Shown: piece after piece, positions 26,839-62,328 of the stretch | Layout of the letters: every line of letters begins with the position of its first letter | Numbering within the stretch: the first letter of the stretch is position 1 | NCBI RefSeq assembly: GCF_000251145.1 | Contig: NZ_AIDW01000036.1 | Span: forward strand, 124,001 to 188,000 | DNA length: 64,000 nucleotides | From: Sphingomonas sp. PAMC 26621 | GTDB taxonomy: Bacteria > Pseudomonadota > Alphaproteobacteria > Sphingomonadales > Sphingomonadaceae | Reading direction: 5' to 3' | The notes under the pieces: model-generated | Seen by the model: the letters and a program-made list of their open reading frames with translations, nothing else | Database searches by the model: none | Told to the model about the DNA's origin: nothing | Program-made: the position numbers and the translations under genes

Positions 26839-26840
26839 GA

Positions 26841-27056: not shown

Positions 27057-27058
27057 TC

Positions 27059-42365: not shown

Positions 42366-42405
42366 CGGTGTAAACGAGACGCTCTACCAACTGAGCTAAT
42401 CGCCC
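42366..42405. repeat. Middle att site (attR of prophage 1 / left end of prophage 2)
   Basis: Exact copy of the 40-bp core at 1558-1597, but without the 3' half of the tRNA, so no tRNA is encoded here. Flanked by the two integrase genes; the prophage 2 integrase stop codon (42396-42398) is inside the core. Confidence 0.9.
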
Positions 42406-45613: not shown

Positions 45614-45618
45614 CGGTG

Positions 45619-46857: not shown

Positions 46858-46860
46858 TGT

Positions 46861-48541: not shown

Positions 48542-48549
48542 ACCACGCT

Positions 48550-48735
48550 TCACGACGGCATCCCGTCATGCTGGACGCCATTAAGCAGGCGCCCGGCGGC
48601 ACTATTGTCCGGCCTCCGAACAACATGGAACTCGCCGCCACGGCGATCTTCGTCCGCGCGCCTGCGCTTCTCCGCCAAGACGCGTCCGAGCAGGTCATAG
48701 TCGTAGCGCTCAAAGCGCGTACCCTCGCCGATCAT
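48550..48735 (-). CDS. Hypothetical protein, 61 aa
   Basis: Charged small protein (MIGEGTRFERYDYDLLGRVLAEKRRRADED). Start overlaps the upstream stop (48732-48735). Convergent with the gene at 48254. Not recognised. Confidence 0.5.
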   Translation of the reverse strand: MIGEGTRFERYDYDLLGRVLAEKRRRADEDRRGGEFHVVRRPDNSAAGRLLNGVQHDGMPS

Positions 48736-48938
48736 AGCGCACCCCGCATACGGACCGGGCCCGTGTCAGGCGTGTGGGGCTTGGCGGCGTCCCAGCGCGT
48801 CTCATCGACTTCGAACGGCGGACGTTCGCGGTTCCGGTGGCGGCAAAGCACCTTCCCGTTGCGCGTTGGCACGGTCGACAGGCGGCGGAGCGGCAGGAAG
48901 TGACCGGTGGTCACCTCGACGTTGCGATACTGGGCCAT
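48732..48938 (-). CDS. Hypothetical protein, 68 aa
   Basis: Basic beta-rich peptide (YRNVEVTTGHFLPLRRLSTVPTRNGKVLCRHR). Overlaps its upstream neighbour by one base and downstream by 4. No family. Confidence 0.5.
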   Translation of the reverse strand: MAQYRNVEVTTGHFLPLRRLSTVPTRNGKVLCRHRNRERPPFEVDETRWDAAKPHTPDTGPVRMRGAL

Positions 48939-49213
48939 CAGCGCACCGCCTGCGCGGCGGGTGCCTGCTGCGCCTGGTGGACGAAGACCGGGAGGGCGTT
49001 GAACAGCATCGACGCCACCAGGATCACGGCGGCGATCAGCACGACCCGCGTCAGAACGAATTCCAGAAGCTCGGCGTTGGCGCGCATCCGATCGTTCTGG
49101 CGGCGCGCTGCGCGCTCCTCGTCAGCTATGCGGAACCAGTCGGCTGGCGTAAGTTCGATCGGCGCGACTTCGCGATCGCGCTGCTGCGCGATGGGGGTGC
49201 GGTCCATCTTCAT
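48938..49213 (-). CDS. Single-span membrane protein
   Basis: 91 aa from ATG 49213, overlapping the upstream stop. Soluble N-terminal half (IELTPADWFRIADEERAARRQNDRMRANAEL), then one C-terminal membrane helix (VVLIAAVILVASMLFNALPVFV) and an Ala/Gln tail. Orientation suggests a cytoplasmic domain anchored at the membrane. Confidence 0.6.
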   Translation of the reverse strand: MKMDRTPIAQQRDREVAPIELTPADWFRIADEERAARRQNDRMRANAELLEFVLTRVVLIAAVILVASMLFNALPVFVHQAQQAPAAQAVR

Positions 49214-49563
49214 ATCGTGGCATCCGTCCATTTGATCTCGCCCGAGGGCGTGATGATTTTGACACGCCGACCGTCGCGAGATTTCACGAGCAGCGGGCAA
49301 CGGAGGTAGATCGTCTTGTAGATGTCCCAGGGGTCGCTGGGGTTCGGCATCAGCAGCGGCACCTGATACGACCAGACCTTCTTGGCGCTGCTGCCGGGCT
49401 TCCGCGTCTCGAGCGTGGCGATCTGCTCCTTGGTCCAGGGCGAACCCTCGACCGCGGTTCCCTGCCAGACGTCATGCATCGACGGTCGAACCTTGGGCCC
49501 GGACTGGAGCGCGATCTTAATCTCGAGCGCGGACAGGCGCGGCGTTTCTGCTGCGTCGGTCAT
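49210..49563 (-). CDS. Hypothetical early protein, 117 aa
   Basis: Soluble mixed-fold protein with SPWTKEQIATLETRKPG and VWSYQVPLLMPNPSDPWDIYKTIYLRCPLLVKS. Start and stop overlap neighbours. No recognised domain. Confidence 0.55.
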   Translation of the reverse strand: MTDAAETPRLSALEIKIALQSGPKVRPSMHDVWQGTAVEGSPWTKEQIATLETRKPGSSAKKVWSYQVPLLMPNPSDPWDIYKTIYLRCPLLVKSRDGRRVKIITPSGEIKWTDATI

Positions 49564-49997
49564 CAGCCGGAATATCCCGTATAGGCGTGACAGGCACCGC
49601 GCGCCGCGGCGTCGAGACGCAGCGCCTCGCGATAGTCGGCATCAGCGCGGGCGAGCGCAGCCTCGGTCACGCGGACATGCTCGGCGCGGCCCTTACGCTC
49701 GGCCTCGAGCGCGACCGTCATCTGCCGCGCGCTGGGCTTGCGGTTAATCTTGGAGCGCTTGATCTCGTTGGCGTCGATCGCGAGGATCGCCATGAAGGCA
49801 TCGCAGTCGAGGCCGATCCGCTCCGCACGGAGCCCGATCTCAGACGCCAGATCGCGCACATACGCTTTCACCGCAGCCTGCACGTTCAAGTCATTGCGGA
49901 CCCGCTCGTAACGCAGCTTGGCCTTCTCTGCCCGCATCCGGGCGAATACCGGGCGAAGCTCTGCGATAGCCAGATCAAGGTCGGGATCACGCGTCAT
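49563..49997 (-). CDS. Hypothetical helical early protein
   Basis: 144 aa from ATG 49997. Almost wholly helical and Ala/Arg/Glu-rich (LRPVFARMRAEKAKLRYERVRND, LEAERKGRAEHVRVTEAALARADADYREAL), probably a coiled coil. The upstream gene ends inside its start (ATGA). Confidence 0.55.
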   Translation of the reverse strand: MTRDPDLDLAIAELRPVFARMRAEKAKLRYERVRNDLNVQAAVKAYVRDLASEIGLRAERIGLDCDAFMAILAIDANEIKRSKINRKPSARQMTVALEAERKGRAEHVRVTEAALARADADYREALRLDAAARGACHAYTGYSG

Positions 49998-50362
49998 CGC
50001 GGCGCGCCCTCGACATACGCCCAGCGCGCGCGGTGCGGCGACGCCTTCGCGTATGCCTTGCCCGCCTCGAAATGGTCGACGCGATACTTCGCCTGCCAAG
50101 TGCGCAGGCCGATGCTGTCCTTCTCCCGGTGCGCGCCCGAGCAGAGCGGCACGGCGTGATAGTCGGGGCTCTTGAGGCCAACGCCTTTCATGCCGTCAGC
50201 ATCGGAGTGCGACGCTTCCATCACGCCGGAGCAGACATGCCCCGCCCGCCCCTCAATCAGGCAGGGGCGCTTCCGCAGCCAAGCAAGGTGGGTCGGGAAA
50301 CGCCGGTCGGCATCCGCCTTCATGCTGTTGCGCTGGCGCGGCCGGACATCGACGCGGAACAT
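49994..50362 (-). CDS. DUF968/HNH-like recombination protein
   Basis: 122 aa from ATG 50362. CLIEGRAGHVCSGVMEASHSDADGMKGVGLKSPDYHAVPLCSGAHREKDSIG resembles the Cys/His core of DUF968 and HNH-type proteins in phages (a-c-H...PLC..HH). Probably metal-dependent nuclease or DNA-binding factor; the match is by motif only. Confidence 0.6.
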   Translation of the reverse strand: MFRVDVRPRQRNSMKADADRRFPTHLAWLRKRPCLIEGRAGHVCSGVMEASHSDADGMKGVGLKSPDYHAVPLCSGAHREKDSIGLRTWQAKYRVDHFEAGKAYAKASPHRARWAYVEGAPR

Positions 50363-50661
50363 CAGCGCTCGACCAATACGTAATGGGTGATCCCGCACAG
50401 GTCGCCGTGGTCACGGTTCCAGCGGCGCTCCCACGCGCCCGCCCGGCGCGGCGGCTGGAAATAGTCGAACTCGGATTCGAAGACGCACTGGATCTGCACC
50501 AGCGTCTGCGGCGGGAGCGGGCAATCGCCCCCTGCCCATGCGATCGGCTGCGCCTGCTCGGCGTCCAGCCCATCAAGCAACACCTTGTCGGTGACTGCCT
50601 TGCTGAAAACTTCGGGTGGTAGCAGGGCCACTTCGATCTCCTCGCCACCTGCATGCCGCAC
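50362..50661 (-). CDS. Hypothetical first gene of leftward operon
   Basis: 99 aa from GTG 50661, the first codon after the early promoter at about 50690-50720. IEVALLPPEVFSKAVTDKVLLDGLDAEQAQPIAWAGGD then aromatic C-terminal part (FQPPRRAGAWERRW). Same position as host-takeover or anti-restriction genes in other phages; no homology recognised. Confidence 0.5.
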   Translation of the reverse strand: MRHAGGEEIEVALLPPEVFSKAVTDKVLLDGLDAEQAQPIAWAGGDCPLPPQTLVQIQCVFESEFDYFQPPRRAGAWERRWNRDHGDLCGITHYVLVER

Positions 50662-50689
50662 GGCGCGGCTGATCAGGTGGCGAGGAGAA

Positions 50690-50741
50690 CTTTATGCGGG
50701 GAGTTTCCCGCAGTCAATAGGAGCGCGGGATGTTTCCCGCT
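50690..50741 (-). promoter_or_regulatory. Prophage 2 leftward promoter with two operators
   Basis: On the minus strand TTGACT, 17 bp, TAAAGT. Operator TGCGGGGAGTTTCCCGCA (50695-50712) lies within the promoter, exactly in the spacer; a second, CGCGGGATGTTTCCCGCT (50724-50741), lies just upstream. Both match TGCGGG-N6-CCCGCA found at the repressor gene, so the repressor should shut off the leftward operon including integrase. Confidence 0.75.
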
Positions 50742-50747
50742 TTTTTA

Positions 50748-51083
50748 TCAGCTGGAGGCCTTCAGGCCCACGCATTGTTTCCAAATTCCGCCAATCGTGC
50801 CGAACTTTTTGCGCCACTCCACGCGGCTGCCTGCACCTTCGGGGATCACCGTGAAGGCCATCGAAACGCCTCCATAGCCATTCTTGATCAGGACGACCTT
50901 GGACCCGTTGTCTTGGTCCAAGGCGGCCGTGTTATTCTTGTTCGCAAGGCAGAACGCGACCTTGTTGGCCGAGTCTTGCGAATGAAATGTCTCGGTGACC
51001 GGGCCATTCAAGACGGTTTGCGTAGAGGCGCAACCTGCCAAAAGAGCCGCTGCCCCCAGCGTACCCAAAACTAGGACCTTCAT
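50748..51083 (-). CDS. Lipoprotein expressed behind the repressor
   Basis: 111 aa from ATG 51083 (GGGGGA 5 nt upstream). Signal peptide MKVLVLGTLGAAALLAGC ends in a lipobox with acceptor Cys 18; mature part about 94 aa with three more Cys, possibly disulfides. It lies 39 bp after the repressor on the same strand, so it should be made in the lysogen. Phage lipoproteins in this position often block superinfection; here inferred, no family recognised. Confidence 0.65.
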   Translation of the reverse strand: MKVLVLGTLGAAALLAGCASTQTVLNGPVTETFHSQDSANKVAFCLANKNNTAALDQDNGSKVVLIKNGYGGVSMAFTVIPEGAGSRVEWRKKFGTIGGIWKQCVGLKASS

Positions 51084-51122
51084 CATATTCCCCCGTTTCA
51101 CCTCGCACAGCGCGAGGCATTC

Positions 51123-51848
51123 CTACATCCCGAAAGCCTCATCCCAGGGCATGACCCGGTGGACCTCCCGGTAAAGCCTCGAATCCAACCTGAAGATTGC
51201 TGGCGGATTGAATTGCTCGAGCTCGATATACGTTGCGGACCGACGCACCAGTCGCTTGATAAGCACGCCCGCGGCATCTGCGCCATCGGTACGATCTCGC
51301 AGGTAAACAACGACATAATCCCGCATATTTGGCGGGCGCTTAGGGTCGACGATGATCCCTTGACCGCTCTCGTATGCTGGCTCCATCGAAACGCCGGCGA
51401 CGTACAGGCCATAGATATCGCGTCGGTTCATCAGGTTGGGTGGCCGCCGGAAACGGTCCACCACTTCTGCCATGTTCAGATCGGTTTGTTCGATCGCGAG
51501 GCTTCCATCGAAATCGCCACTGAACTGCTGTTCCCCGCCCAACGCGGTGCCGTACACAGGTATATCCTGAAGCATATCCTGTGGTTCGGGGATCAATGCT
51601 CGGATCTCGCTCGAAGGCTCAAGTCCGGCCCCTGGTTGATCAGTGGTGCCTTGCAGGTAATCAACAGTGGTTTCGAGAACCCCAGCGAGAGCTTGCAAGC
51701 GAGACGCAAGTGGTCGAGCACCACGCCGAATATCACGTATTAGGTCCGGCTTGCCCACTGCCGTAAGTGACGCTTTGCGATCACTCACGCCGAGCGCGTT
51801 CAGTCGCTCGTCGATTCGATCTATGAGAACGATATTCGGTTCAGCCAT
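51123..51848 (-). CDS. CI-like repressor with S24 peptidase domain
   Basis: 241 aa from ATG 51848 (GGAGG upstream; an earlier in-frame start at 51941 would cross the operators). IDERLNALGVSDRKASLTAVGKPDLIRDIRRGARPLASRLQALAGVLE is an XRE-like helix-turn-helix; DIPVYGTALGGEQQ is the Ala-Gly-type linker; YVAGVSMEPAYESGQGIIVD carries the catalytic Ser and VLIKRLVRR the Lys. Maintains lysogeny of prophage 2 through the TGCGGG dyads, one of which covers its own start. Confidence 0.85.
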   Translation of the reverse strand: MAEPNIVLIDRIDERLNALGVSDRKASLTAVGKPDLIRDIRRGARPLASRLQALAGVLETTVDYLQGTTDQPGAGLEPSSEIRALIPEPQDMLQDIPVYGTALGGEQQFSGDFDGSLAIEQTDLNMAEVVDRFRRPPNLMNRRDIYGLYVAGVSMEPAYESGQGIIVDPKRPPNMRDYVVVYLRDRTDGADAAGVLIKRLVRRSATYIELEQFNPPAIFRLDSRLYREVHRVMPWDEAFGM

Positions 51849-51927
51849 GCGGGCTTCCTCCCGCAAACCGACCGAAAACGCATGCGGGAAGTTTCCCTTG
51901 ACAGGTGCGGGACGCGGCCCGCATATA
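51848..51927. promoter_or_regulatory. Prophage 2 right operator cluster and promoter
   Basis: Sites of type TGCGGG-N6-CCCGCA at 51848-51865 (exact, over repressor start and ribosome site), 51883-51900 (right half degenerate, ending TTG) and 51906-51923 (exact). A plus-strand -35 TTGACA (51898-51903) and -10-like CATATA (51922-51927), 18 bp apart, drive the cro operon with operator 3 in the spacer. Explains repression of cro and repressor autoregulation. Confidence 0.78.
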
Positions 51928-51953
51928 GGCGTTGCAATCACGAGAGCGACGCA

Positions 51954-52163
51954 ATGCCAGAGACGCCATTCCTTGCCGACGTAGACCGATTTCTCGCCGC
52001 TTCGAGGATGGCTGAAAGCGCGTTCGGTCGCGCCGCGGTAAACGACTGGAAGTTCATTTCCCAGTTGCGTGCTGGCCGCCGGGTATGGCCCGAGACCGAG
52101 GCGAAGGTTCGGAAGTTCATGGCTTCATATCGTCCGGCCAACCAAGAGCGGGAGGCGGCATGA
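51954..52163 (+). CDS. Cro-like regulator
   Basis: 69 aa from ATG 51954. LADVDRFLAASRMAESAFGRAAVNDWKFISQLRAGRRVWPETEAKVRKFM is a helix-turn-helix of the small phage regulator type. First gene right of the operator cluster, divergent from the repressor, hence Cro by position. Confidence 0.7.
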   Translation: MPETPFLADVDRFLAASRMAESAFGRAAVNDWKFISQLRAGRRVWPETEAKVRKFMASYRPANQEREAA

Positions 52164-52351
52164 CGCACGCCGAGGACATCGCTCGCGGCGACGCGGAGAT
52201 CGCCGCGCTCGTGGCGAAGCTCGACACCGTCCCCGGTACGCGCTGTGCCGTGTGCCGGCTCCCCGTCTGCGGGCACTCCGACGCGGAATATGCCGGTGTC
52301 GTTTGTCTCAAGGCGGATCATCAACTTCATGCAGAGAGCGATAAGGCATGA
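52160..52351 (+). CDS. Small Cys-rich protein
   Basis: 63 aa; start overlaps the Cro-like stop. Contains CAVCRLPVCGH and a later Cys/His (VCLKADHQLH), suggesting one zinc site after a short helix. Unknown function. Confidence 0.55.
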   Translation: MTHAEDIARGDAEIAALVAKLDTVPGTRCAVCRLPVCGHSDAEYAGVVCLKADHQLHAESDKA

Positions 52352-52824
52352 GCCTCGACCAGTCCGCGAATTTGCCGCCCCTCATTTCCCGCGAGCGCGG
52401 CCATGACGCAGTGCGCGATGCGCTGCGCCTCTTCATCGGTCGCGGTCGTCGCTATTCGGTCAAGCAGGTCTCGAACGCCACGGGCGTGAAGGATCGGGTG
52501 ATCGAATGCGCGATGACCCTCGCGGCGGATCCCGAGTGCCGGTCCATTCACATTGGCGACTTGCTATCGATCGCGGGCTTCCTCGGCCCCGAGTTCACGA
52601 CCGAGTGGCTGCTGCTCGCGCAACAGGCCGCGGTCGCGCTCCCCGATGCCGACGAGCCCGGGCCCGGACAGCTGGCGGCCGACGTTGCCGACGACACAGC
52701 GACGATCGTGCGCGCAGCCCGCGACGGTGTTTTTGATCGGGAGGAGCGGCGCGACCTGAAAGCGGTCGGTGCCCGGATGATTTTGCACGGCGGGGCGCTC
52801 GTACAGCTTCGCGCCATAGGTTGA
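52348..52824 (+). CDS. Phage transcriptional regulator, CII-position
   Basis: 158 aa, ATGA overlap with the previous gene. VRDALRLFIGRGRRYSVKQVSNATGVKDRVIECAMTLAADPECRSIHIGDLLSIAGFLGPEF forms a helix-turn-helix followed by a dimerisation-like helix; C-terminal DDTATIVRAARDGVFDREERRDLKAVG is a coil often seen in CII/CP76-type regulators. Position second or third after cro supports a CII-like role. Confidence 0.6.
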   Translation: MSLDQSANLPPLISRERGHDAVRDALRLFIGRGRRYSVKQVSNATGVKDRVIECAMTLAADPECRSIHIGDLLSIAGFLGPEFTTEWLLLAQQAAVALPDADEPGPGQLAADVADDTATIVRAARDGVFDREERRDLKAVGARMILHGGALVQLRAIG

Positions 52825-52861
52825 GGATCAACGCCGGGGCGACCGGCAGGGAGTAACGACA

Positions 52862-53059
52862 ATGCCGAACACCATCAGGGTGGTGGCGACGAAGGTCGCT
52901 TCTACCGGAGAGAAACTGCGCCCGGCGGCTGTGCTGCCGATGTCGCGTATCATCATCACCGGCGGCGAGTGCTTCGGCTTCATGCCGATCAGCGACGTCC
53001 GCAAGGTCCCGGTTTCGCGCGTGCTGCGAATGAACCGCCTGATCCAAGGCGCTGTATAA
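52862..53059 (+). CDS. Hypothetical early protein, 65 aa
   Basis: Beta-rich basic protein (VVATKVASTGEKLRPAAVLPMSRIIITGGECFGFMPISDV). Stop overlaps next start (TAATG). Not recognised. Confidence 0.55.
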   Translation: MPNTIRVVATKVASTGEKLRPAAVLPMSRIIITGGECFGFMPISDVRKVPVSRVLRMNRLIQGAV

Positions 53060-53238
53060 TGGCTGACCAGCTCGACCAAGCTGCCGAGATCACCGATCTC
53101 TACCTGCAGCGCAGCATCCGCGCCGCGCGCCAGCCCGTCCCAGTCGGCGTGCCCGGCGAGTGCGAGACCTGCTTTGAGGACAGCCCCCGCCTGGTCGGCG
53201 GATGCTGTGCCCCTTGCCGCGATGGGAAGCGCCGATGA
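53059..53238 (+). CDS. DksA/TraR-like C4 zinc-finger protein
   Basis: 59 aa. A 25-residue helix then VPGECETCFEDSPRLVGGCCAPCRDG with two CxxC pairs. Related to the prophage 1 protein at 34832-35056 (PVPxGVPG(D/E)C). Probably binds RNA polymerase like other short phage TraR proteins; inferred. Confidence 0.6.
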   Translation: MADQLDQAAEITDLYLQRSIRAARQPVPVGVPGECETCFEDSPRLVGGCCAPCRDGKRR

Positions 53239-53762
53239 CGCGCGCATGCTCCGATTGTGCTGGCCCGATCAGCCGCTGCTCGAAAGGCCGCTGCCGTGCG
53301 TGCGCAACCGCGCGCCTCAATAGTGACCCCGCGATCATTGCGCGTCGCCATGCCGCCATCAGCGCGGCGGCGGCGAAGCCTGGGGCAAACGATGCGAGGA
53401 AGGCCTCGCTCGCGCGCTACATCGCGAACATGCCGGAGGCCGAGGTCGAGCGGCGCCGCGCCAACGGTCGCCGTCTCGCGCGCGACGTGCTCAGCCGCCC
53501 CGAGGTGAAGGCAAAGGCGTCATCGGCAGAGGTCCGCGCCCGCGCCGGGCGGGCGAAGACCGAGACCATGCTCGGCTGGTGCCCACCCGCGTTGCGCGAG
53601 TCCTATCGGCACCTGCTCAAGAAGGGATACCTCGCCGCGGACGCCCGCCGGATGATCGAGGCCGAGATCCCGGAGACGGCGGCGCACACTAAGCGAGTGC
53701 TCGCCAATCACCGCGACGTTCAGCGCATCCGCGCCGAGCGTGAGCAGGCGCAGGCATACTGA
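53235..53762 (+). CDS. Zinc-finger/basic phage protein
   Basis: 175 aa. N-terminal CSDCAGPISRCSKGRCRAC is a four-Cys knuckle, then a long Ala/Arg-rich helix (ANMPEAEVERRRANGRRLARD) and a C-terminal part with CPPALRESYRHLLKKGYLAADARRMI resembling a small DNA-binding domain. ATGA overlaps at both ends. Nucleic-acid binding likely. Confidence 0.6.
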   Translation: MTRACSDCAGPISRCSKGRCRACATARLNSDPAIIARRHAAISAAAAKPGANDARKASLARYIANMPEAEVERRRANGRRLARDVLSRPEVKAKASSAEVRARAGRAKTETMLGWCPPALRESYRHLLKKGYLAADARRMIEAEIPETAAHTKRVLANHRDVQRIRAEREQAQAY

Positions 53763-54925
53763 TGACCGCCGCGCAGATCCTCATCGGTGACGTCCGCGAG
53801 CAGCTGGCGCGAATCCCGTCGAATTCGGTCGACTGTTGCGTGACATCGCCGCCGTATTGGGGGCTGCGCGACTATGGCGTGATCGGACAGATCGGGCTCG
53901 AGCCGACGCTCGGCGAGCACCTCGCCGTGATGGTCGAGGTGTTTCGCGAGGTTCGCCGGGTCCTGAAAGCACAGGGCACCTGCTGGCTGAACTATGGCGA
54001 CTGCTATGCGGCGGCACCGAACGGGAAGTCGGTAGAAGCCTATAAGGCCGACGGCAGCGATGACCGCACGTTCCGCGACAAGCCGTTCTCGACGGTTGGG
54101 CCGATCTACGATCCGAACCACCAAGGCGGCCGGAACAAGACACCAAACATCGGCGGCATCAGTGGAAAGGGTCAAGCTCCCTCCCGCGGTGCGATCGTCG
54201 CCGGTGGGTTCCTGAAGCCGAAGGATCTCTGCATGATCCCTAACCGGCTCGCGATCGCCTTGCAGGATGACGGTTGGTACGTCCGCTCGGAGATCATCTG
54301 GCACAAGCCGAACCCGATGCCGGAGAGCGTGTACGACCGCCCGACGACCGCGCACGAGAAGATCTGGCTCCTGAGCAAGGGTGAGGACTACTTCTACAAC
54401 CACGCCGCAATTCGGGAGCCGGTGACCGGTGGTGCCCATGCCCGCCGTCCAGGACCGAACAGCCGTCAGAACGTCGACCGCGTGCCGGTGCCTCGTAAGG
54501 GCAAGACAGCAGCAGCTGGTAGCGGCATTCGCAACAACGAGAGTTTCTCAGCTGCGGTGGCCGACATCGTCAGCGACACGAAGAACGCGCGCAACGTGTG
54601 GACGATCGCGCCGAAGCCGTTCCGTGAAGCCCACTTCGCGACATTCCCGCCAGCGTTAGCCGAGCGATGCGTGAAGGCCGGATGCCCAACGACGGTCTGC
54701 GGTTACTGCGGCGCGACCGACGGCTGCGGTGCGATTTGCGCAACGTTCGACCGCAAGCCAGGCGTCGTGCTCGATCCCTTCGGCGGCGCTGGGACGGTCG
54801 GGCTCGTCGCGGAAGAAATGGGGCTCGGCTCCATCCTGATCGAGCTTAACCCTGAATACGCCGCGATCGCTGATCGCCGGATCGCCGAGGCGCGCACACC
54901 AATCACCAAGGGAGAACGACCATGA
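53762..54925 (+). CDS. DNA methyltransferase, beta-class N4/N6 type
   Basis: 387 aa. Motif [14 protein letters not shown] (residues 29-40) comes before motif [18 protein letters not shown] near 340, the circular order of class beta MTases; SPPYW favours N4-cytosine over N6-adenine. A central [14 protein letters not shown] insert adds a possible zinc site. No restriction enzyme nearby, so it is likely an orphan phage methylase protecting DNA or controlling transcription. Confidence 0.85.
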
Positions 54926-55725
54926 GCGACGTGATCGCATCCGACCAATTGCGCCTCCTGATCGAGCGCATTGAGCGGCTCGAAGAAGAGAAGAAAGGCA
55001 TCGCTGACGACATCAAGGATGTCTACGGCGAGGCGAAATCGACTGGGTTTGACGTAAAGACAATCCGTGCGATCATCCAGCTGCGCAAGATGGACGTCAA
55101 CTCGCGCCGCGAAGCCGAAGCTTTGCTGGATACCTACAAGGCCGCGCTCGGGATGCTCGACGGCACCCCCTTGGGCCACTGGGCGCTCGAACGTCTTTCG
55201 AAGAAGCCTGACGATCAAATCGGGGCCGAAGAGGATGCATCGACAGCCGACGGCGAGACCTACGACGCCGCGGTAAAGCTGGTGCTCACCAGCCGCAAAG
55301 CCGCGGTATCATGGCTGCAGCGCCAGTTGCGTATCGGATATAATTCCGCCGCACGGCTTGTTGAGCGGATGCAAACGGAAGGCTTGGTATCTGCACCGGA
55401 TCATATCGGCCGCCGGGAAGTCATTGCACCCGCGCCGGAAGGCACCGACGCGGCTGAAACGGCCGATGTGACCGAGCCTGTAGCGCCTGAACCTACAGTC
55501 GAAGACGCCAGCGTGATAGGTCAAGAAGCGGCGCGGGCAGGTGCTCCGGTCACCGCGAACCCCTTCCCTGCACGCGACGTCCGGCGCGCAGCATGGGACG
55601 AAGCATGGTGCAAAGAATTGGGCAGCGATGGAATGGACATTCCTGATGCGCTGAAGCCGGCGGCTAAGCCCAAGAAGGAGGACGGTTCGGCACCCGCCGA
55701 TGAGCCCAAGGCGGCGGGGCAATGA
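54922..55725 (+). CDS. GapR (DUF2312)-FtsK gamma fusion protein
   Basis: 267 aa. Residues 5-78 ([37 protein letters not shown]) match GapR, which clamps overtwisted AT-rich DNA ahead of replication forks. Residues 112-168 ([37 protein letters not shown]) match the FtsK gamma winged helix that reads KOPS. An acidic linker leads to [17 protein letters not shown] near 213-230, similar to small RMF/CrpP-type motifs. The fusion may steer phage DNA topology during replication. Confidence 0.8.
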
Positions 55726-56624
55726 CGGCGGCGAACTCGACCGAACGGGAAAGCCTTGAGGCGGCACTTGGCGGGAGTGGCCAGGTCGTCATGCCCGGTG
55801 ATGCGCAGTCCCCGATCCTGACGGCACCGGTGCGCGCTGCGCTCCATCAGTGGCTCTTCGAGATGAACGCTGAGGACGAACTTGCAGAAGTCGGGCTCAA
55901 GCCGCGTAGTCGGTGCCTGCTCTCCGGGCCGCCAGGTTGCGGAAAGACCACCCTTGCTCATCACATCGCGGCGCGCCTCGGCGTTCCAATGCTGATTGTT
56001 CAGAGTCACGAGATCATCAGCAAATGGAAGGGCGAGACCGGACAGAATGTCGGCAAGCTGTTCCGCGAAGCACGGCGGCAGCATGGCGGCATTGCGCTGT
56101 TCTTCGATGAGTTCGACGCAATCGGTACCAAGCGCGAAAACATGAGCGGCTCCGGCGCTGATAACGAGCGCGCCGCGACCACGATTGCGCTTCTTCAAGA
56201 GTTTGATCGCTTCGACGGCCTGCTGTTCGCCGCGACAAACGTGACGGGGGCGATCGACCCGGCGCTTTGGCGCAGGTTTCAGATGCAGATCGAGATTGGC
56301 ATGCCTGGCCCTGCGGAGCGGTTCGCGATCGTACGCATGTACGTGGAACCGTTTGCCGTAACTGACGAAACCGTCACGGCCATTGCGGACGCCCTTTCCG
56401 GCGCATCCCCGGCGCTGATTCGGGAAGGCTGCGAGATGATCAAGCGCAGCATTATCCTCGGACCAAAAATGAACCTTCCGACCGATCTGACATCGATCAT
56501 GGAGCGGTTTGGCAACAGCGCGTCGCCTCCGGAAGGCATGCCAGTGCCGTGCCTTTGGTCAGATCGTCGCGGCGCATTGAACGACCTGCGCCGCGCACCA
56601 TGGCCGCCGGAGCGCCGGACATGA
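55722..56624 (+). CDS. AAA+ ATPase
   Basis: 300 aa. Walker [10 protein letters not shown] at residue 70, Walker [13 protein letters not shown] near 127, sensor-1 FAATN, and an arginine pair [10 protein letters not shown] near 188, typical of classical AAA (FtsH/Cdc48-like) modules. No N-terminal substrate domain is visible, so it probably unfolds or remodels a phage or host complex; role in replication suggested by neighbours. ATGA-coupled to the GapR fusion. Confidence 0.8.
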
Positions 56625-56836
56625 AGAGCTGGATAGCGAAACTGGTGCGCGGCCGACGCTCTTCGGTGTCGGTGGATGAGCGTATTCTTATCCTCGACAG
56701 CATGCTCGAGCAGCGGTTGCAGTCGAGGAAAGCTGACCGCGGTGTGCGCCAGGAACGCTCGCGTCGCGCTGCCGCAACAAAGGTGCATGCACAGGTCGCC
56801 CGCGACCCGCTGCTGCGCGAGCAGGTAGGATTCTAG
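56621..56836 (+). CDS. Small basic helical protein
   Basis: 71 aa, overlapping the AAA+ stop. Positively charged helices (LEQRLQSRKADRGVRQERSRRAAATKV) without hydrophobic core; probably nucleic-acid binding or a partner of the ATPase. Confidence 0.5.
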   Translation: MKSWIAKLVRGRRSSVSVDERILILDSMLEQRLQSRKADRGVRQERSRRAAATKVHAQVARDPLLREQVGF

Positions 56837-56839
56837 TCG

Positions 56840-57658
56840 GTGAGTAAGCGCCCTGCCTTTCAATTCTACCCAGCCGATTGGCGCACTGAGGCAGGTCTTC
56901 GCCTTTGCTCCATGCCCGCACGCGGGCTGTGGATCGAGATGATGTGCCTCATGCACGATGCCGCACCCTACGGCCATCTTACTGCGCTCGGCCGTCCCAT
57001 GACCGCCGAAGCAGTGGCCCGGTTGGTTGGTGAAGGCGTCGGCCCGGTCAAGAAGTGGCTTGCCGAACTAGAGGCGAACGAAGTCTTCTCGCGCAACGAC
57101 GATGGCGTGATCTTCAGCCGCCGCATGGTCCGTGACGAAGAGGTTCGGCAGGCACGGGCCGCTGGCGGACCGGCTGGTGGAGAACATGGCCATAAGGGGG
57201 CTTCGCACGGCGCGAAGGGCGGTCGACCGCGCAAAGAAAAAGCCCCCTTATCCGACCCAGAAAGGGGGGTTATTTTACCCCCCCCTTCTTCTTCTCCTTC
57301 ATCTCCATCTGCAGAAGAAGAAGAAGATTCAGTTGCTAACGCAACTGCCGAAAATCCGGTTGAGCCCCCTGAGCCAGTCAACCCCGAGAAGGTGATGTTC
57401 GACCAAGGCAAGCGACTGCTCGCAGAGGCCGGGATCGTGAACGGCAAGGCTGGCAGCCTCCTTGGGAAATGGAAGCGCGACCACGGTGCCGAAGCCGTGA
57501 TCGTCGCCCTCGGCAAAGCCCAGCGCGAAGGCGCAATCGACCCCGTCAGTTTCATCGAAGGATGTTTCCGGAATGGCCCACAATCCCGACCTGCCCGCCA
57601 ATCTCGCAACGGCTTCCTCGATGCCATCATTGATGAGGAGCGCGCAGCCCGTGCTTGA
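56840..57658 (+). CDS. Replication protein with DUF1376-like N-terminus
   Basis: 272 aa from GTG 56840. FQFYPADWRTEAGLRLCSMPARGLWIEMMCLMHDA matches the YdaU/DUF1376 phage replication domain; then a winged helix, a low-complexity GGPRKEK / SSSPSSPSAEEEEDS linker and a C-terminal helical domain (LLGKWKRDHGAEAVIVALGKAQREGAIDP) as in DnaD/DnaT-like loaders. The A-rich strand 57310-57335 encodes the acidic linker. Confidence 0.7.
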   Translation: MSKRPAFQFYPADWRTEAGLRLCSMPARGLWIEMMCLMHDAAPYGHLTALGRPMTAEAVARLVGEGVGPVKKWLAELEANEVFSRNDDGVIFSRRMVRDEEVRQARAAGGPAGGEHGHKGASHGAKGGRPRKEKAPLSDPERGVILPPPSSSPSSPSAEEEEDSVANATAENPVEPPEPVNPEKVMFDQGKRLLAEAGIVNGKAGSLLGKWKRDHGAEAVIVALGKAQREGAIDPVSFIEGCFRNGPQSRPARQSRNGFLDAIIDEERAARA

Positions 57659-58178
57659 TCGAGCGTTCGAACCTGGCGCGGTATTCAGCGCGGCCGATAT
57701 CGCGGTCATCACACCTCTGGCGAATGCTATCGCCGAGCCGCAGGTGGCTGACACGAAGTTCATTCGTCAGTCGCTGGGCGGCTTAGCTGCGTCCTTGCCC
57801 AGCCAAGCGACCGACATCATTCACGGCAACCTCAAGCTGGGCACGTACAAGGCGATGTTCGAAGGCTGCGACCCGCGTGCGCTGGCATACGCGGTGCGCC
57901 GCTGTCTGGACGAACTCGACTGGATGCCGACCGTCCATCAGATCAAGGAGCGGATGGCGATCTGGATCAGCCCCGAGGAGGCGGCGATCCGACGTGCGCG
58001 CTTCATTCTCCGAACGGGGAAGCGCGACGAGCCCGAGCAGGACATCCCGATCACTGCTGCTCAGATCCGCGCCATGAAGCCCGAATTCCGCTCAATGGGT
58101 CTGGCGGCTGGCCATCTGACACAGGACGAGATTGACGCGGCACTGTCCGAGCCGGTCGAGCAGGCACAAGCCGCATGA
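57573..58178 (+). CDS. Hypothetical replication-region protein
   Basis: 201 aa from ATG 57573 (GAAGG upstream) overlapping the previous gene by 86 bp; ATG 57621 or 57633 would reduce the overlap. FIRQSLGGLAASLPSQATDIIHGNLKLGTYKAMFEGCDPRALAYAVRRCLDELDWMPTVHQIKERM looks like a helical helicase-loader-like fold, but no motif proves it. Stop overlaps the cupin start. Confidence 0.6.
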   Translation: MAHNPDLPANLATASSMPSLMRSAQPVLDRAFEPGAVFSAADIAVITPLANAIAEPQVADTKFIRQSLGGLAASLPSQATDIIHGNLKLGTYKAMFEGCDPRALAYAVRRCLDELDWMPTVHQIKERMAIWISPEEAAIRRARFILRTGKRDEPEQDIPITAAQIRAMKPEFRSMGLAAGHLTQDEIDAALSEPVEQAQAA

Positions 58179-58594
58179 TGCCGCTGGTCGTAACCGCGCT
58201 AATCAAGGCGGCCCCCTCCATCCGGATCGAGGTCATGTCCCCGGCCCTCCGCAAGATCCACCTCGGCGATGATCGGGCTCTGCACCACTTCACGCGGGGC
58301 GACGACGGTGAGGAATACCATTCGCACCCATGGTCATTCACCTCAGAGGTTCTGCACGGAGGCTATGCCGAAGACATCGTGGTCAGCCTTTACCCGTTCA
58401 CCGTGCTGGAGAAACGCCGCCTGCCTGGTACCACGCACCAGGTTGAGGCGAACCACATCCACCGCATCACGCGATTGCTCGGCGAGGATTGCTGGACGCT
58501 AGTCATCGCGGGCCCGGCCGAGCGGGAGGTGCAGTTCTATCGGCATCGCGAGGGTGGCGTGCAGTCCCGGCGATGGGACGAGGCATGGCAATGA
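58175..58594 (+). CDS. Cupin-like phage protein
   Basis: 139 aa. HSHPWSFTSEVLHGGYAEDI and GTTHQVEANHIHRITRLLGEDCWTLVIAGP match the two cupin motifs with metal-binding His; related to 47384-47860. Two copies in separate operons of one prophage suggest distinct timing. Substrate unknown. Confidence 0.65.
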   Translation: MMPLVVTALIKAAPSIRIEVMSPALRKIHLGDDRALHHFTRGDDGEEYHSHPWSFTSEVLHGGYAEDIVVSLYPFTVLEKRRLPGTTHQVEANHIHRITRLLGEDCWTLVIAGPAEREVQFYRHREGGVQSRRWDEAWQ

Positions 58595-59307
58595 CGGCAG
58601 TCAATTCACAGTCAGTATCAAGGTTCAAGGGGTGGGGTATGAGTAGGAAGGCAGCACGGCGCAGGGAAGATACGGATTGGTGCATCCTGCGCACCTCGGG
58701 AGGCCGGACGCTCAACCTAGCCCGCTCGCTCGCCGAGGCGGGCTTTGACGTTTGGACGCCCATTCGCACCATCAAGCGACCGCACGGCAAGCCAGACCAG
58801 AAGGGCCGGCGCAGCACGGTAGAGATTGATATGCCGATTTTGCCGACGTTCGTGTTTGCCCGTGCCGGTGGCCTCTCTGCTTTGGCGCATACCGCGGGCG
58901 ATCCCGTACACCAGCATCCACCGTTCTCGATTTTCTTACATGCTGGGCGCATCCCGCTGATCGGTGCCGCCTCAGTTGCTGGGTTGCAGGAAGAGGAACG
59001 GTTCGCCGCCGAACAGATAACCGCGCTGCGTGACGCTGAGACGCGAGAGGAACAGCGCCGCATTCGTGGCGCCGCGCTGAAGACCAAACGCGAGCGGGAG
59101 AAAGCCTTGCGTGCGGAACGGCACGACTTCGCGATCGGCGCGGAGGTGTCCGTTGCCGATCAGCAGTCGTTGGCAGGGATGACCGGGGTGATAACGAGCA
59201 GCGATGGGCGCAGCGCGGTTGTCGCTTTCGGCGGTTCGCTGACTATGACGATTGAGGCTTGGCGTCTGTCGCCACATGATGTAAGCGCAGCTTTGATAGC
59301 CGCTTGA
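58591..59307 (+). CDS. NusG/RfaH-like antiterminator
   Basis: 238 aa from ATG 58591. DWCILRTSGGRTLNLARSLAEAGFDVWTPIRTIKRP and MPILPTFVFARAG form the NGN domain; a 60-residue charged helical insert follows; AIGAEVSVADQQSLAGMTGVITSSDGRSAVVAFGG is a KOW domain. A phage-specific paralogue of NusG at the end of the early operon and before late genes fits a processive antiterminator replacing lambda N or Q. Recruiting site not identified. Confidence 0.75.
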   Translation: MTAVNSQSVSRFKGWGMSRKAARRREDTDWCILRTSGGRTLNLARSLAEAGFDVWTPIRTIKRPHGKPDQKGRRSTVEIDMPILPTFVFARAGGLSALAHTAGDPVHQHPPFSIFLHAGRIPLIGAASVAGLQEEERFAAEQITALRDAETREEQRRIRGAALKTKREREKALRAERHDFAIGAEVSVADQQSLAGMTGVITSSDGRSAVVAFGGSLTMTIEAWRLSPHDVSAALIAA

Positions 59308-59535
59308 TCGGCACCTGGCGCAGATGATCTTGAGCTTGTTCTCATGCGCACGCCAACCCCGCGAGAGCCAGCGCTCAGACGGTTGTCCTACGGCATGACG
59401 ATAATGCAATTCATAGTTCGGTTGGCTGACTGTTCCCTCCCTGGCGGTCAGCACACCCCCTCACCGACGCGCGCGACGCGAGACATAGGCGATCAGGCAT
59501 AGCCTTGATCGGCCGACTGATGGTGAGGAAAGACA
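59308..59535. other. Intergenic region with dyad, possible late promoter or antiterminator site
   Basis: 228 bp without a gene. Near its end GATCAGGCATAGCCTTGATC (59491-59510) is a near-perfect dyad (GATCA-GGC/GCC-TGATC) 26 bp before the HNH gene start. The stretch divides early from head genes and follows the NusG-like gene, so a late-control or recruitment element is plausible. Confidence 0.45.
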
Positions 59536-59898
59536 ATGGCCAAGCTCAAGACGCTGCCCAGTCGCCTCGGTTCACTGAGCCCGACGCGCGGCCACCTGCC
59601 AGCGCCTGAGCGGAAGCCCGAAGCCGAACGCAAGGTGTTCTCGCCTTGGCGAGCTTGGTACAACACGACGCGCTGGCGTCGCCTGCGCTGGGCGCAGCTG
59701 GTCAAGGACCGCTTCACCTGCACCCGGTGCGGGAAGCTTGAAGGCGACACCGCCAAGCTGGTCTGCGACCACGTCACTCCACACCGCGGCAGCGCGGACC
59801 TGTTCTGGGACGAGTGCAACCTGACTACGCTCTGCAAGCCGTGCCACGATAGCGCCAAGCAACGCGAGGAGCAGACCCAAGGTATGCGCGGAGCGTGA
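59536..59898 (+). CDS. HNH endonuclease
   Basis: 120 aa. TCTRCG, CDHVTPHRG, DECNLTTLCKPCHDSAKQ give the two CxxC zinc ligands and the His-Asn-His core. In HK97-type phages an HNH nuclease beside the terminase is needed for efficient cos cleavage; the next genes are terminase subunits. Confidence 0.88.
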   Translation: MAKLKTLPSRLGSLSPTRGHLPAPERKPEAERKVFSPWRAWYNTTRWRRLRWAQLVKDRFTCTRCGKLEGDTAKLVCDHVTPHRGSADLFWDECNLTTLCKPCHDSAKQREEQTQGMRGA

Positions 59899-60071
59899 CG
59901 TGCCCTGCAGCGCGCTGGCGGGCTTCCTGCGAGGCCTGACGCGGCACCAGACCGGGGGGGGTGGGTCGGACTTCGGGGCGGGTCGACGCCTTAGACCGGT
60001 AATGCTCTCACGCAGAGAAAAAACTCCTCTGGAGCGATCCGGGGTGCGACTAGGCCGCGGGAACCGATGCG
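59899..60071. other. Intergenic region upstream of small terminase
   Basis: About 170 bp, G-rich around 59956-59975, no gene seen. A possible cos region because it lies between HNH and small terminase; no sequence proof. Confidence 0.35.
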
Positions 60072-60641
60072 ATGAAGACTTCCCGCCCAACTGTCGACTG
60101 GCCAAGAATTGAACTCGAATACTGTGCCAACGAAGATTCCATTCGAGAAATAGCCGACCGGCATGCAATTTCTGACACGGCTATTCGTAAGCGCGCCAAG
60201 GCCGAAAAGTGGGTTCGATTGGTTCGCACCCCGCCAAGTGCGAACCAGTGCGAACCTGAGCTAACCGCACCGCCTCCCCGGCCTGTTGACCCATCTGAAC
60301 CAGTCGACCCGGTCGCGATCGCGGATGGGGGGCGCGGCTTGGTCTGGCGTATGCTCGACGAGCTCGATGCCACCACGACACGGCGCGGCGAGCTCGAAGA
60401 CATGATCATCGCAGCGACCGACGGCGACGACGATACGGCCCGGCGGGAATCGATGATGCGCGCGGTCAGCCTGAGCAGCCGCGCCAACAATCTCAAGACG
60501 CTCGCGCTGGCGTTCAAGACGCTGAACGAAGCATCAGCGCCGCAAGGCAAGAAGGCCGCGGCGCAAGAGCGTGCCACCCAGATCGGGGGCAGTTCCCGGT
60601 TCGGATCTATCGGCCCACCGAAGCTGAAGGCAGTCCAGTAG
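60072..60641 (+). CDS. Terminase small subunit
   Basis: 189 aa. RIELEYCANEDSIREIADRHAISDTAIRKRAKAEKW is a resolvase-like helix-turn-helix; Pro-rich linker; C-terminal helices (LKTLALAFKTLNEAS) for oligomerisation. Located 1 bp before the large subunit gene. Confidence 0.75.
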   Translation: MKTSRPTVDWPRIELEYCANEDSIREIADRHAISDTAIRKRAKAEKWVRLVRTPPSANQCEPELTAPPPRPVDPSEPVDPVAIADGGRGLVWRMLDELDATTTRRGELEDMIIAATDGDDDTARRESMMRAVSLSSRANNLKTLALAFKTLNEASAPQGKKAAAQERATQIGGSSRFGSIGPPKLKAVQ

Positions 60642-60642
60642 C

Positions 60643-62328
60643 GTGGTGACCTGGTCGACCGCGAACCTCGACTGGAAGCGCAACATCCGTGAGCGGCGAT
60701 CGCTGATCCCGTTTGCTCCGCTGTTCCCGGCATCGGCTGATGCCAAGATGGCGGTGTTCACGTCGCTGAAGATCGTCGACATACCGGGTCGCCCGACGTT
60801 CGGCGAGGCATCGGACCAGTGGCTGCTCGACTTCGTGGCGGCGATCTTCGGCGCATACGACCCCGAGACCGGGCAGCAGATGATCCGGGAGTTCCTGCTC
60901 CTAATCTCGAAGAAGAATACGAAATCGACGCTAGCCGCGGGGATCATGCTAACCGAGCTTATCTGCGGCTGGCGCGAGGAAGATGAGAACCTGATCCTCG
61001 CGCCGACGATCGAGGTCGCGGGCAATAGTTCGAAGCCGGCGTTCGCGATGATCCGCGCCGACGAAGAGCTTGTCGAGCTTCTGCATATCCAGGAGCACAT
61101 CCGGCTGATCACGCATCGGGTGACGAAAGCGACCCTGAAGGTGGTTGCGGCGGACAGCGCTACGGTTTCGGGCAAGAAGGCCAGCCGGGTCCTAGTCGAC
61201 GAGCTTTGGTTATTCGGCAAGAAGTCGACGGCGGACTCAATGCTTCGCGAAGCGACCGGCGGGCAAGTGTCACGGCCGGAGGGATACACCCTCTACCTGA
61301 CGACGCAGTCAGACGAGCCGCCCGCTGGGGTGTTCAAGGAGAAGCTGGCCTATTTCCGCGACGTCCGCGACGGCGTCATCAACGACCCGGAGAGTCTGCC
61401 GGTTCTGTACGAGTTCCCCGACGAGATGGTCGCCGCGGGCGAGCATCTCGATCCTGCCAACTTCTACGTCACCAACCCAAATCTTGGCCTTTCGGTCAGC
61501 CAGAAGTGGCTTGAGAGCGAGTTCCGCAAGGTCGAGAACGCCGAGGACGGCACGAAGCAGGTCTTTTACGCGAAGCATTTGAATGTCGAGATCGGCGTCG
61601 GTCTTCGCCACGATGCTTGGGTGGGCGCTCTCTACTGGCAGGCGGCGCGCGCGGCGCCGGAAGTCTGGGACGGCACGCTCGACCAGTTCCTTGCAATCGT
61701 CGAGGTAGTGGTCGCCGGCGGCGACGGCGGCGGGCTCGACGATCTGATGGGGCTGGCGCTCCTCGGGCGGCACAAGGTCACCAAGCAGTGACTGCTCTGG
61801 TGCCGGGCGTGGGCGCAGCAAGACGTTTTCGACCGGCGCAAAGACATCGTTTCCAACCTCAACGACTTCGCGGCCGAGGGGTCGCTGGTCAAATGCCTGA
61901 CGCCGACGCAGGACCTGATTGAGGTCGCCGACCTGCTCGAGCGGGTGAAGGATCTCGGGCTGTTCCCGGAACAGGCGGCAATCGGCCTTGATCCGCAGGG
62001 CATTACCTCGCTGGTCGACGAACTGACCGGTCGCGGCTTCACGATCGACCAGATTCCGGCGATCAGCCAAGGCTTTCGGCTTTCAGGGGCGGTCTGGGGC
62101 ACCGAGCGAAAGCTGAAGGACGGCACACTGATTCACGCCGGTCAGGCGCTGATGGCCTGGTGTGCGGGCAACGCGAAGGCAGAGCAGCGCGGGAACGCCG
62201 TTCTGATCACCAAGCAAATCGCCGGCAAGGCGAAGATCGATCCGCTCATCGCCGCCTTCAACGCGGTGGTGCTCATGTCCCGCAATCCGGAAGCAGCCGG
62301 TGCGGGGCCGCAATTCATGTTCATCTGA
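60643..62328 (+). pseudogene. Terminase large subunit, HK97 type, interrupted by in-frame TGA
   Basis: 561 codons from GTG 60643. ATPase region SKKNTKSTLAAGIMLTELIC (Walker A-like) near 88 and SRVLVDELWLFGKK (Walker B) near 183; nuclease domain DGGGLDDLMGLALLGR. At 61789-61791 TGA stands where family members have Trp; the same frame goes on at once with [32 protein letters not shown] and [31 protein letters not shown] to 62328. The 382-aa front part lacks half of the nuclease domain, so packaging would fail unless the stop is read through. Confidence 0.85.

What the first reader, a model, noticed from the sequence alone, without database searches (positions are those of the whole stretch)
54922..55725. 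GapR-FtsK-gamma fusion: a new combination of two chromosome-organising DNA readers
GapR binds overtwisted DNA ahead of forks, FtsK gamma reads polar KOPS sequences. Fusing them with a third short motif ([17 protein letters not shown]) in one phage protein, next to an AAA+ ATPase, suggests a factor that places phage replication or segregation relative to host chromosome topology. I do not know a described example.
Basis: partly seen in the sequence, partly recalled or inferred. Interest (0 to 1): 0.72.

Follow-up and report, generated by a model that had tools for sequence, protein, structure and literature searches.

The report
Phage DNA-clamp fusion with its ATPase
This prophage gene really does fuse a DNA-encircling protein (GapR) to the DNA-reading tip of the cell-division motor FtsK, and it is one variant of a two-gene phage unit, apparently undescribed, in which a GapR clamp with a conserved tail is nearly always paired with its own ATPase, often beside phage replication genes.

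Summary
The fusion is real. ORF 54922-55725 (267 aa) passes Pfam cut-offs for GapR (E 1.9e-33) and FtsK gamma (E 3.5e-21); the unnamed 'third motif' resembles the Rmf/CrpP hairpin, below curated cut-offs. But the fusion is not the unit. The unit is a two-gene cassette: a GapR-[middle]-Rmf-like protein and a classical AAA ATPase. An AAA motif found 119 loci; 117 encode the AAA; 102 of these have at least 900 bases upstream, and 101 of the 102 carry GapR plus the Rmf-like segment there. Controls separate: 27 of 27 weaker phage AAA loci lack both, and 73 of 73 GapR loci without this AAA lack Rmf. FtsK gamma is an optional insert: 5 of 104 cassettes, plus Rhodobacter capsulatus phages in another domain order, with at least 6 changes on the AAA tree. 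Replication genes are common nearby. Best reading: the AAA loads or strips a GapR clamp on phage DNA; gamma adds a KOPS or XerD contact. The cassette is shown; the mechanism is inferred.

The parts
54922..55725 (+). GapR-FtsK gamma-Rmf-like fusion protein, 267 aa; its ATG overlaps the stop of the methyltransferase gene and its stop overlaps the ATG of the AAA gene
54937..55152 (+). GapR DNA-binding domain (residues 6-77); of the Caulobacter DNA contacts K34, K42, K49, K56, K59, K60, R63, K66 the aligned residues are K24, K32, K39, K46, R49, A50, Q53, K56
   Evidence: searches (Pfam; alignment), contacts from PMC7498317 passages, VIA-align to 6ozy_B
55156..55194 (+). conserved LDGTPLGxWAxER helix directly after GapR, shared with many GapR-Rmf relatives
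   Evidence: alignment, one search list, model (helix 83-93)
55252..55428 (+). FtsK gamma winged helix (residues 111-169), the optional insert
   Evidence: (2ve9_A, rmsd 1.0 over 62), absent from the six relatives aligned
55321..55347 (+). residues 134-142 RQLRIGYNS, aligned with the 9-residue XerD-activating stretch RQFRIGYNR (FtsK 1289-1297) of E. coli; 7 of 9 identical; KOPS residues N1296, R1300, E1303 = N141, R145, E148 kept
   Evidence: alignment; PMC5052618 passages; PMC2533119 and PMC2680272 passages
55507..55644 (+). Rmf/CrpP-like helical hairpin and tail (residues 196-241, [18 protein letters not shown]...GSDGMDIP), conserved in the cassette members aligned
55722..56624 (+). partner AAA ATPase, 300 aa, classical AAA clade, only about 60 residues before the AAA core; Walker A/B, sensor and arginine residues kept
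53762..54925 (+). N6/N4 DNA methyltransferase directly upstream (not a constant part of the cassette)
   Evidence: tblastn, on the 115 loci then held, found it only in the two copies of this phage
56840..57658 (+). replisome-organizer-like gene downstream of the AAA gene
   Evidence: phrog_13246, E 4.2e-8

Best explanation
The protein is the gamma-bearing variant of a two-gene phage cassette: (1) a GapR-type clamp with a conserved C-terminal Rmf-like hairpin, and (2) a classical AAA ATPase, translationally coupled in the window. Most likely mechanism: the GapR part assembles a ring around phage DNA, preferring overtwisted or AT-rich stretches such as those near an active origin or fork; the Rmf-like tail is the handle by which the AAA ring takes hold of it; ATP hydrolysis opens, loads or strips the clamp so that phage replication can start and run. 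FtsK gamma, where present, is an inserted second address: it contacts KOPS-like DNA or host XerD and so ties the clamp to host terminus/segregation machinery or to phage sites. Shown here: the domains, the near-obligate pairing of GapR-Rmf with the AAA, the optional and recurrent gamma, frequent replication genes nearby. Inferred: clamp formation, the tail as AAA handle, loading or stripping, and what gamma binds.
For: Pairing: 101 of 102 AAA loci with at least 900 bases upstream have GapR and Rmf hits there; with the 15 shorter loci added, 104 of 117 (my own profiles). In 102 of the 104 both are in one ORF. Controls: 0 of 27 weaker AAA loci have either, and 0 of 73 GapR loci without this AAA have Rmf. 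Coupling: start and stop overlap in the window, RcKemmy and RcMeacham. Tail: A1, G5, N18, P19, D31, G42, M43 invariant in 35 aligned tails. Distances correlate a little better for AAA-Rmf (0.57; partial 0.41 given GapR) than for AAA-GapR (0.48; partial 0.23 given Rmf) in 88 loci. AAA: its profile hits p97/Cdc48/NSF-type protein remodellers (best E 9.6e-62), catalytic residues invariant in 9 aligned. Five of the eight listed GapR DNA contacts identical, one K to R. Replication genes nearby. Gamma keeps the KOPS triad and 7 of 9 residues of the XerD peptide in the window and changes state at least 6 times on the AAA tree, e.g. L176 with and L204 without at 82% AAA identity.
Against: No biochemistry exists here. 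The loci were found with a motif taken from cassette members, so 101 of 102 describes this AAA clade, not all AAA proteins; some loci are near-copies (107 distinct AAA stretches among 117). Control loci include short contigs. The distance correlations are not tests of contact, because the two genes are inherited together. The clamp's R63 and K60 equivalents are Q and A. KOPS is not enriched in the window. R1300 is A in 3 of 5 fusion gammas. The AAA's best defence-library match is IetA (E 4e-51), so a conflict role is open. One locus (L211) has the AAA without GapR or Rmf. Only a minority of the 115 neighbours scanned fall in any single replication family.
Confidence: 0.42

Rival explanations
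1. Interference with host segregation: gamma works as a decoy that engages host XerD or occupies KOPS, so that FtsK/Xer chromosome handling is blocked or turned to the phage; the GapR clamp supplies avidity on DNA.
For: The five fusion gammas keep the residue aligned with R1289 and a stretch like the one that suffices for XerD activation in E. coli; R1300A separates XerD activation from KOPS reading (PMC2680272 passages) and 3 of 5 gammas have exactly that change.
Against: Gamma is present in only 5 of 104 cassettes, so it cannot be the core function. This prophage region has a phage-type integrase (42399-43652), so no sign of Xer-based integration. Nothing about the host Xer system was tested.
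Confidence: 0.15
2. Conflict system: the AAA is a phage relative of the defence ATPase IetA, and the cassette blocks host defence or superinfecting phages, with the GapR-Rmf protein as sensor of foreign or replicating DNA.
For: PADLOC IetA models match the AAA at E 4e-51 to 6e-27; among the 15 plasmid records listed of 51 with a match, at 33-37% identity, one is annotated 'anti-phage ATPase' and one match runs into an S8 peptidase gene.
Against: No S8 peptidase among the 10 representatives or the 25 of 113 families shown (the other 88 were not seen); no PADLOC match for the fusion protein; frequent replication genes nearby; IetA itself is a broad AAA match.
Confidence: 0.13
3. Transcription factor: like T4 DsbA, which a published analysis relates to GapR and links to late promoters, the clamp recruits RNA polymerase or shapes promoters, and the AAA removes it.
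For: PMC7824862 passages: DsbA is a GapR homologue predicted to ring dsDNA and might recruit RNA polymerase to late promoters.
Against: The cassette lies near replication genes in the loci scanned; the partner AAA was not tied to transcription by any search.
Confidence: 0.12
4. Gamma is a neutral passenger: phages pick up host FtsK tips by chance recombination, and the insert in the disordered linker does nothing.
For: The insert lies in a variable linker; gain or loss is frequent; gamma is also attached to unrelated phage proteins: RdgC, small terminase.
Against: The five inserted gammas pass the Pfam cut-off and keep R1289, N1296 and E1303, and gamma was captured in two domain orders.
Confidence: 0.13

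Closest known systems
GapR (UPF0335/DUF2312) nucleoid-associated protein of Caulobacter
   Same: Residues 6-77 pass the Pfam cut-off; most lysine contacts kept
   Different: The solved GapR chains are 78-113 residues long and carry no such extension; here it carries a conserved tail, an AAA partner and in some phages FtsK gamma
FtsK gamma domain (PF09397)
   Same: Fold (2ve9_A rmsd 1.0 over 62), KOPS triad N/R/E and 7 of 9 residues of the XerD peptide in the window protein
   Different: No translocase motor in the protein; R1300 replaced by A in 3 of 5 cassette gammas
Gamma-small terminase fusion of Bacillus phages Sam46/Sam112 (PMC8190038, passages seen)
   Same: A phage DNA-binding protein with an FtsK gamma added
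   Different: Partner is TerS, not GapR; no Rmf-like tail mentioned in the passages
RdgC-gamma fusions of a Vibrio and a Pseudomonas phage (L116, L119)
   Same: Gamma joined to another DNA-binding protein near recombination/replication genes
   Different: RdgC instead of GapR; gamma at the C-terminus
T4 DsbA (GapR homologue according to PMC7824862, passages seen)
   Same: Phage GapR-type ring
   Different: Linked to late promoters there; no AAA partner mentioned in the passages
IetA ATPase of the IetAS defence system
   Same: AAA of the same broad clade, PADLOC E 4e-51
   Different: Partner here is GapR-Rmf, not a subtilisin-like protease (the protease partner is recalled, plus one annotated plasmid neighbour)
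Rmf/CrpP family (NF041886, NF041887, PF04957)
   Same: Hairpin with an NP(F/Y)...R..W..(G/A)W pattern; 31 of 35 tails hit NF041886 at E <= 0.01
   Different: Scores of the window protein stay below curated cut-offs; a domain of a larger protein; ribosome binding untested

Membership tests
GapR family (PF10073) | Profile score above the curated cut-off | tested here: met
   114.3 bits against 22.6; the four other GapR-gamma-Rmf proteins also pass
GapR family (PF10073) | Channel-lining DNA-contact residues | tested here: inconclusive
   K34, K42, K49, K56, K66 identical, K59 to R, K60 to A, R63 to Q (alignment; contacts from PMC7498317 passages)
GapR family (PF10073) | Tetrameric ring around DNA, preference for overtwisted DNA | not testable with these tools
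   needs biochemistry
FtsK gamma domain | Profile score above the curated cut-off and winged-helix fold | tested here: met
   75.1 bits against 30.6; 2ve9_A Z 11.9, rmsd 1.0 over 62 residues
FtsK gamma domain | KOPS-recognition residues N1296, R1300, E1303 | tested here: met
   Met in the window and in L216; not met in L176, L177, L241 (R1300 to A)
FtsK translocase | DNA translocase motor in the same protein | tested here: not met
   Only GapR, FtsK_gamma and a weak RMF match in 267 aa; it is not an FtsK
Rmf/CrpP family | Curated score cut-off | tested here: not met
   28.5 and 31.9 bits against 40 (NF041887), 20.4 and 25.4 against 28 (NF041886), 18.2 against 27.9 (PF04957); called Rmf-like only
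Rmf/CrpP family | Helical hairpin fold | tested here: inconclusive
   Model helices 193-205 and 220-233, pLDDT about 95; 53 of 54 residues of 9iot_y (chain of a hibernating-ribosome entry, presumed RMF, not checked) align at Z 7.2, a level that may be only a common arrangement; profile search of the PDB gave no hit
IetAS defence system | IetA-type AAA plus a serine protease IetS partner | tested here: inconclusive
   AAA half matches IetA; the window genes scanned near it showed no protease, but not every neighbour was scanned; the definition of the pair is recalled
Gamma-small terminase fusion | Terminase_2 domain in the same protein | tested here: not met
   No terminase match for P0001

The most novel reading that the evidence does not exclude
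The cassette is an undescribed phage machine: a DNA-encircling GapR clamp opened and closed by its own dedicated AAA ring through a C-terminal Rmf-like handle, a protein-level clamp loader/unloader for phage replication, onto which phages repeatedly graft the FtsK gamma tip to steer it to host segregation sites or to XerD. In phages gamma is attached to at least two unrelated DNA-encircling protein types (GapR and RdgC; the ring shape of RdgC is recalled), besides the FtsK ring itself.
Probability: 0.33. Interest if true: 0.8.

Novelty: new variant of a known kind. Interest (0 to 1): 0.62.

Why it matters
All parts are known families, but their fixed pairing was not found in print in the searches made. 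If right, it gives a candidate for an ATPase dedicated to a GapR-type clamp, makes the question of how such clamps are loaded or removed testable in a plaque-forming Rhodobacter capsulatus phage, and offers a reason why FtsK gamma domains keep appearing in phage proteins with no translocase. It also puts a possible role on two phage families of unknown function (phrog_4212 and phrog_3757).

Tried and rejected
Rejected: (a) One-off fusion: refuted by L176, L177, L216, L241 and the Rhodobacter phages. (b) Phage genome rich in KOPS: 9 found against 7.2 expected in the window, 30 of 100 shuffles reach 9; 8 of 9 lie on the minus strand, too few to build on. (c) Xer-dependent (dif) integration: the prophage region holds a phage-type integrase; no dif search was made. 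(d) Sequence proof of the Rmf fold from the PDB: only unrelated hits for the window tail and none at E <= 10 for the tail profile. (e) Fold of the 'type II' middle module: no PDB match with E <= 0.001, best E 0.61; this does not show that the fold is new. (g) Prevalence in the class: 1 of 289 genomes at E <= 1e-40, but at most 8 candidates per genome were scored, so this is a weak lower bound.

Rows dropped and limits: of 119 pattern loci, 2 are not this AAA (L229, L261). In one search I had set aside 12 loci that end within 900 bases upstream and lack GapR or Rmf; the even-handed recount is 101 of 102 with at least 900 bases, and 3 both, 4 Rmf only, 8 none among 15 with less. In L157 and L245 GapR and Rmf lie in different frames. 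GapR, gamma and Rmf hits there come from my own profiles, the Rmf one built from cassette members. The tree used 88 distinct rows; it is a 'quick' tree with 32 of 85 inner branches open. In one search some likely type II members (L164, perhaps L208) were labelled 'linker', so its 3 changes of type II are probably too many. In one search, 115 proteins from 55 of 88 loci passed my filters (63 of the 88 had a first downstream ORF); greedy ORF choice may include wrong frames, and 25 of 113 families were shown. In one search the search expression itself required R1289 and N1296, so only R1300, E1303 and E1306 are counted for the host set, which is the 29 best-scoring loci other than the window, plus L003; one (L272) is a short frame. 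One search kept the best 80 of 139 relatives. Alignment A7 held wrong-frame rows and was discarded. Of the 95 papers I saw the listing of 15 and one passage of PMC12429752 (a UPF0335 entry in a table, nothing on GapR, AAA or FtsK).

Full report
What is there. The ORF at 54922-55725 (+) encodes 267 aa. It holds a GapR domain (residues 6-77, Pfam E 1.9e-33) and an FtsK gamma winged helix (111-169, E 3.5e-21), both far above their curated cut-offs, and a C-terminal segment (about 196-241) that resembles Rmf/CrpP proteins below cut-off. Its start overlaps the stop of an N6/N4 DNA methyltransferase gene and its stop overlaps the start of a 300-aa AAA ATPase. The AlphaFold model (15 sequences, mean pLDDT 81.6, pTM 0.33, so domain positions relative to each other are not defined) shows GapR helices, the gamma winged helix and a helix-loop-helix at 193-233, the last two at pLDDT about 95. 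Gamma superposes on KOPS-bound Pseudomonas FtsK gamma at 1.0 A over 62 residues; residues 1-79 align with Caulobacter GapR over 79 residues (Z 7.2).

The gene is in a prophage. The window holds two adjacent phage regions: one with a large terminase at 27062-29194 (-), and one with an integrase at 42399-43652 (-), a repressor at 51126-51941 (-), this cassette, a replisome-organizer-like gene at 56840-57658 and a large terminase at 60643-61791. The host genome has a stand-alone GapR and an FtsK on other contigs.

The constant unit is larger than the fusion. Close relatives of the protein have GapR and the Rmf-like tail but no gamma: L005, L035, L037, L040, L042, L044, L047 (six of them aligned). 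All seven, and the two Rhodobacter phages then held, have a related AAA gene directly downstream. To look from the AAA side I used the DNA pattern for [13 protein letters not shown], which the nine aligned AAA proteins share. It hit 75 loci in viral contigs and 44 in genome contigs, the latter mostly alphaproteobacteria by record title. Of these 119, 117 encode the AAA. With at least 900 bases upstream, 101 of 102 have both GapR and Rmf-like hits within 2.2 kb upstream and one (L211) has neither; among the 15 with less, 3 have both, 4 Rmf only, 8 neither. So 104 of 117 show both, in 102 of these in one ORF. Some loci are near-copies: 107 distinct AAA stretches among the 117. Controls: among the 30 loci of the generic AAA search, the 3 with a strong AAA score have GapR+Rmf and the 27 weaker ones have neither; among the 80 GapR loci, 7 have the AAA and all 7 have Rmf, while 73 lack the AAA and none of the 73 has Rmf (4 of the 73 have a gamma hit). 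Some control loci are short contigs. The pattern came from cassette members, so these numbers describe this AAA clade.

The middle varies. Among 97 distinct fusion proteins in held loci the stretch between GapR and the tail is often an acidic, proline-rich linker; in at least 18 it is a module (PPLFR..G.M.VD...) of unknown fold, two helices and three strands in the model; in a few it is FtsK gamma. Gamma lies between GapR and Rmf in 5 of 104 cassettes: L176, L177, L216, L217 (this phage) and L241; both GapR and gamma pass Pfam cut-offs in all five. In Rhodobacter capsulatus phages RcKemmy and RcMeacham the order is gamma-gamma-GapR-typeII-Rmf, again followed by the AAA; 11 Rhodobacter phage records match the window protein and 11 the AAA, but I read only two. 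L036 is GapR-gamma without Rmf and AAA; L103 has GapR and gamma in separate overlapping ORFs. On the AAA tree gamma changes state at least 6 times, and pairs such as L176 and L204 (without), 82% identical in the AAA, or L216 and L040 (80%), show recent gain or loss.

What gamma can still do. In E. coli N1296, R1300 and E1303 are implicated in KOPS reading (PMC2533119 passages); R1300A or E1303A impair KOPS recognition but support XerCD-dif recombination (PMC2680272 passages); residues 1289-1297 suffice to activate recombination when fused to XerC (PMC5052618 passages). The window gamma keeps N, R and E, and 7 of those 9 residues. L216 also keeps the triad, but L176, L177 and L241 have A for R1300, while 30 of 30 gamma sequences read from host genomes, the best-scoring ones, have R there. 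So KOPS reading is not uniformly kept, and XerD contact is at least as good a guess. KOPS octamers are not enriched in the window (9 against 7.2 expected).

What the AAA can do. By profile it belongs with p97/Cdc48/NSF-type protein remodellers (best E 9.6e-62); Walker A, Walker B, sensor and arginine residues are invariant in nine (assignment of these motifs recalled). It has only about 60 residues before the AAA core. In a defence library it matches IetA at E 4e-51, and plasmid relatives include one annotated anti-phage ATPase and one beside an S8 peptidase (15 of 51 records listed). Replication and recombination genes are common among the neighbours: among 115 downstream proteins from 55 loci the most frequent named families are RusA resolvase (6), DNA methyltransferase (5, 3 and 2), primosomal protein (5), SSB (4), primase/helicase (4) and replication initiation families (4, 4, 3, 2), with 25 of 113 families shown and one protein able to match several (representatives).

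Mechanism. I think the AAA acts on the GapR clamp through the tail to load or strip it during phage replication, with gamma as an optional second address (confidence 0.42). The pairing, the coupling in three phages and the neighbourhood are shown; the clamp, the handle and the direction of remodelling are inferred. Protein distances correlate slightly better between AAA and tail than between AAA and GapR (partial 0.41 against 0.23), which fits the handle idea but does not test contact. Rivals are Xer/FtsK interference, a conflict role near IetA, a DsbA-like transcription role, and a neutral gamma.

Known and new. Phage GapR-type rings have been noted (T4 DsbA, PMC7824862 passages) and gamma fused to a phage DNA-binding protein has been published for a small terminase (PMC8190038 passages). 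The RcC phage paper does not mention FtsK or GapR in its main text (PMC8601537, term search and passages). I found gamma joined to RdgC in the one Vibrio and the one Pseudomonas phage protein so annotated that I scanned. No paper in the listings was seen to describe GapR-Rmf with an AAA partner, or GapR with gamma; I read passages of a few only, and the library holds open-licence papers only. I therefore rate it a new variant of a known kind, with a real chance that the cassette is a system of its own.

Noticed in passing
L116 2598-3695; L119 1942-3159: FtsK gamma fused to the C-terminus of RdgC in a Vibrio phage and a Pseudomonas phage; many further Vibrio phage rows carry the same annotation under their gamma match.
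   Followed up: partly
L114 4611-5942, L115 3668-4990: Rhodobacter capsulatus phage proteins with two gamma domains in front of GapR; the first gamma is degenerate at the KOPS positions.
   Followed up: partly
L162 3406-4137 and at least 17 others: A conserved module (two helices and three strands in the model) replaces the linker between GapR and the Rmf-like tail; no significant PDB match.
   Followed up: partly
L211: The only cassette-type AAA locus with at least 900 bases upstream and neither GapR nor Rmf there; a 105-aa unknown ORF sits upstream instead.
   Followed up: no
L103 4548-5455: GapR and FtsK gamma as two overlapping separate ORFs, a split counterpart of the fusion.
   Followed up: no
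window 23128-29194 and 42396-61791: Two adjacent phage regions with two different large terminases, suggesting neighbouring prophages.
   Followed up: partly
window 45622-46857: Phage phosphoadenosine phosphosulfate reductase family gene (phrog_12882, E 6.8e-205) in the same prophage region.
   Followed up: no
window 58534-59307: ORF matching a phage transcription antiterminator family (phrog_6386, E 4.8e-18).
   Followed up: no
window 2542-3828: O-acetyltransferase-like gene (phrog_3333, E 9.3e-42) near a tRNA-Val at 1522-1597, possibly a lysogenic conversion gene.
   Followed up: no
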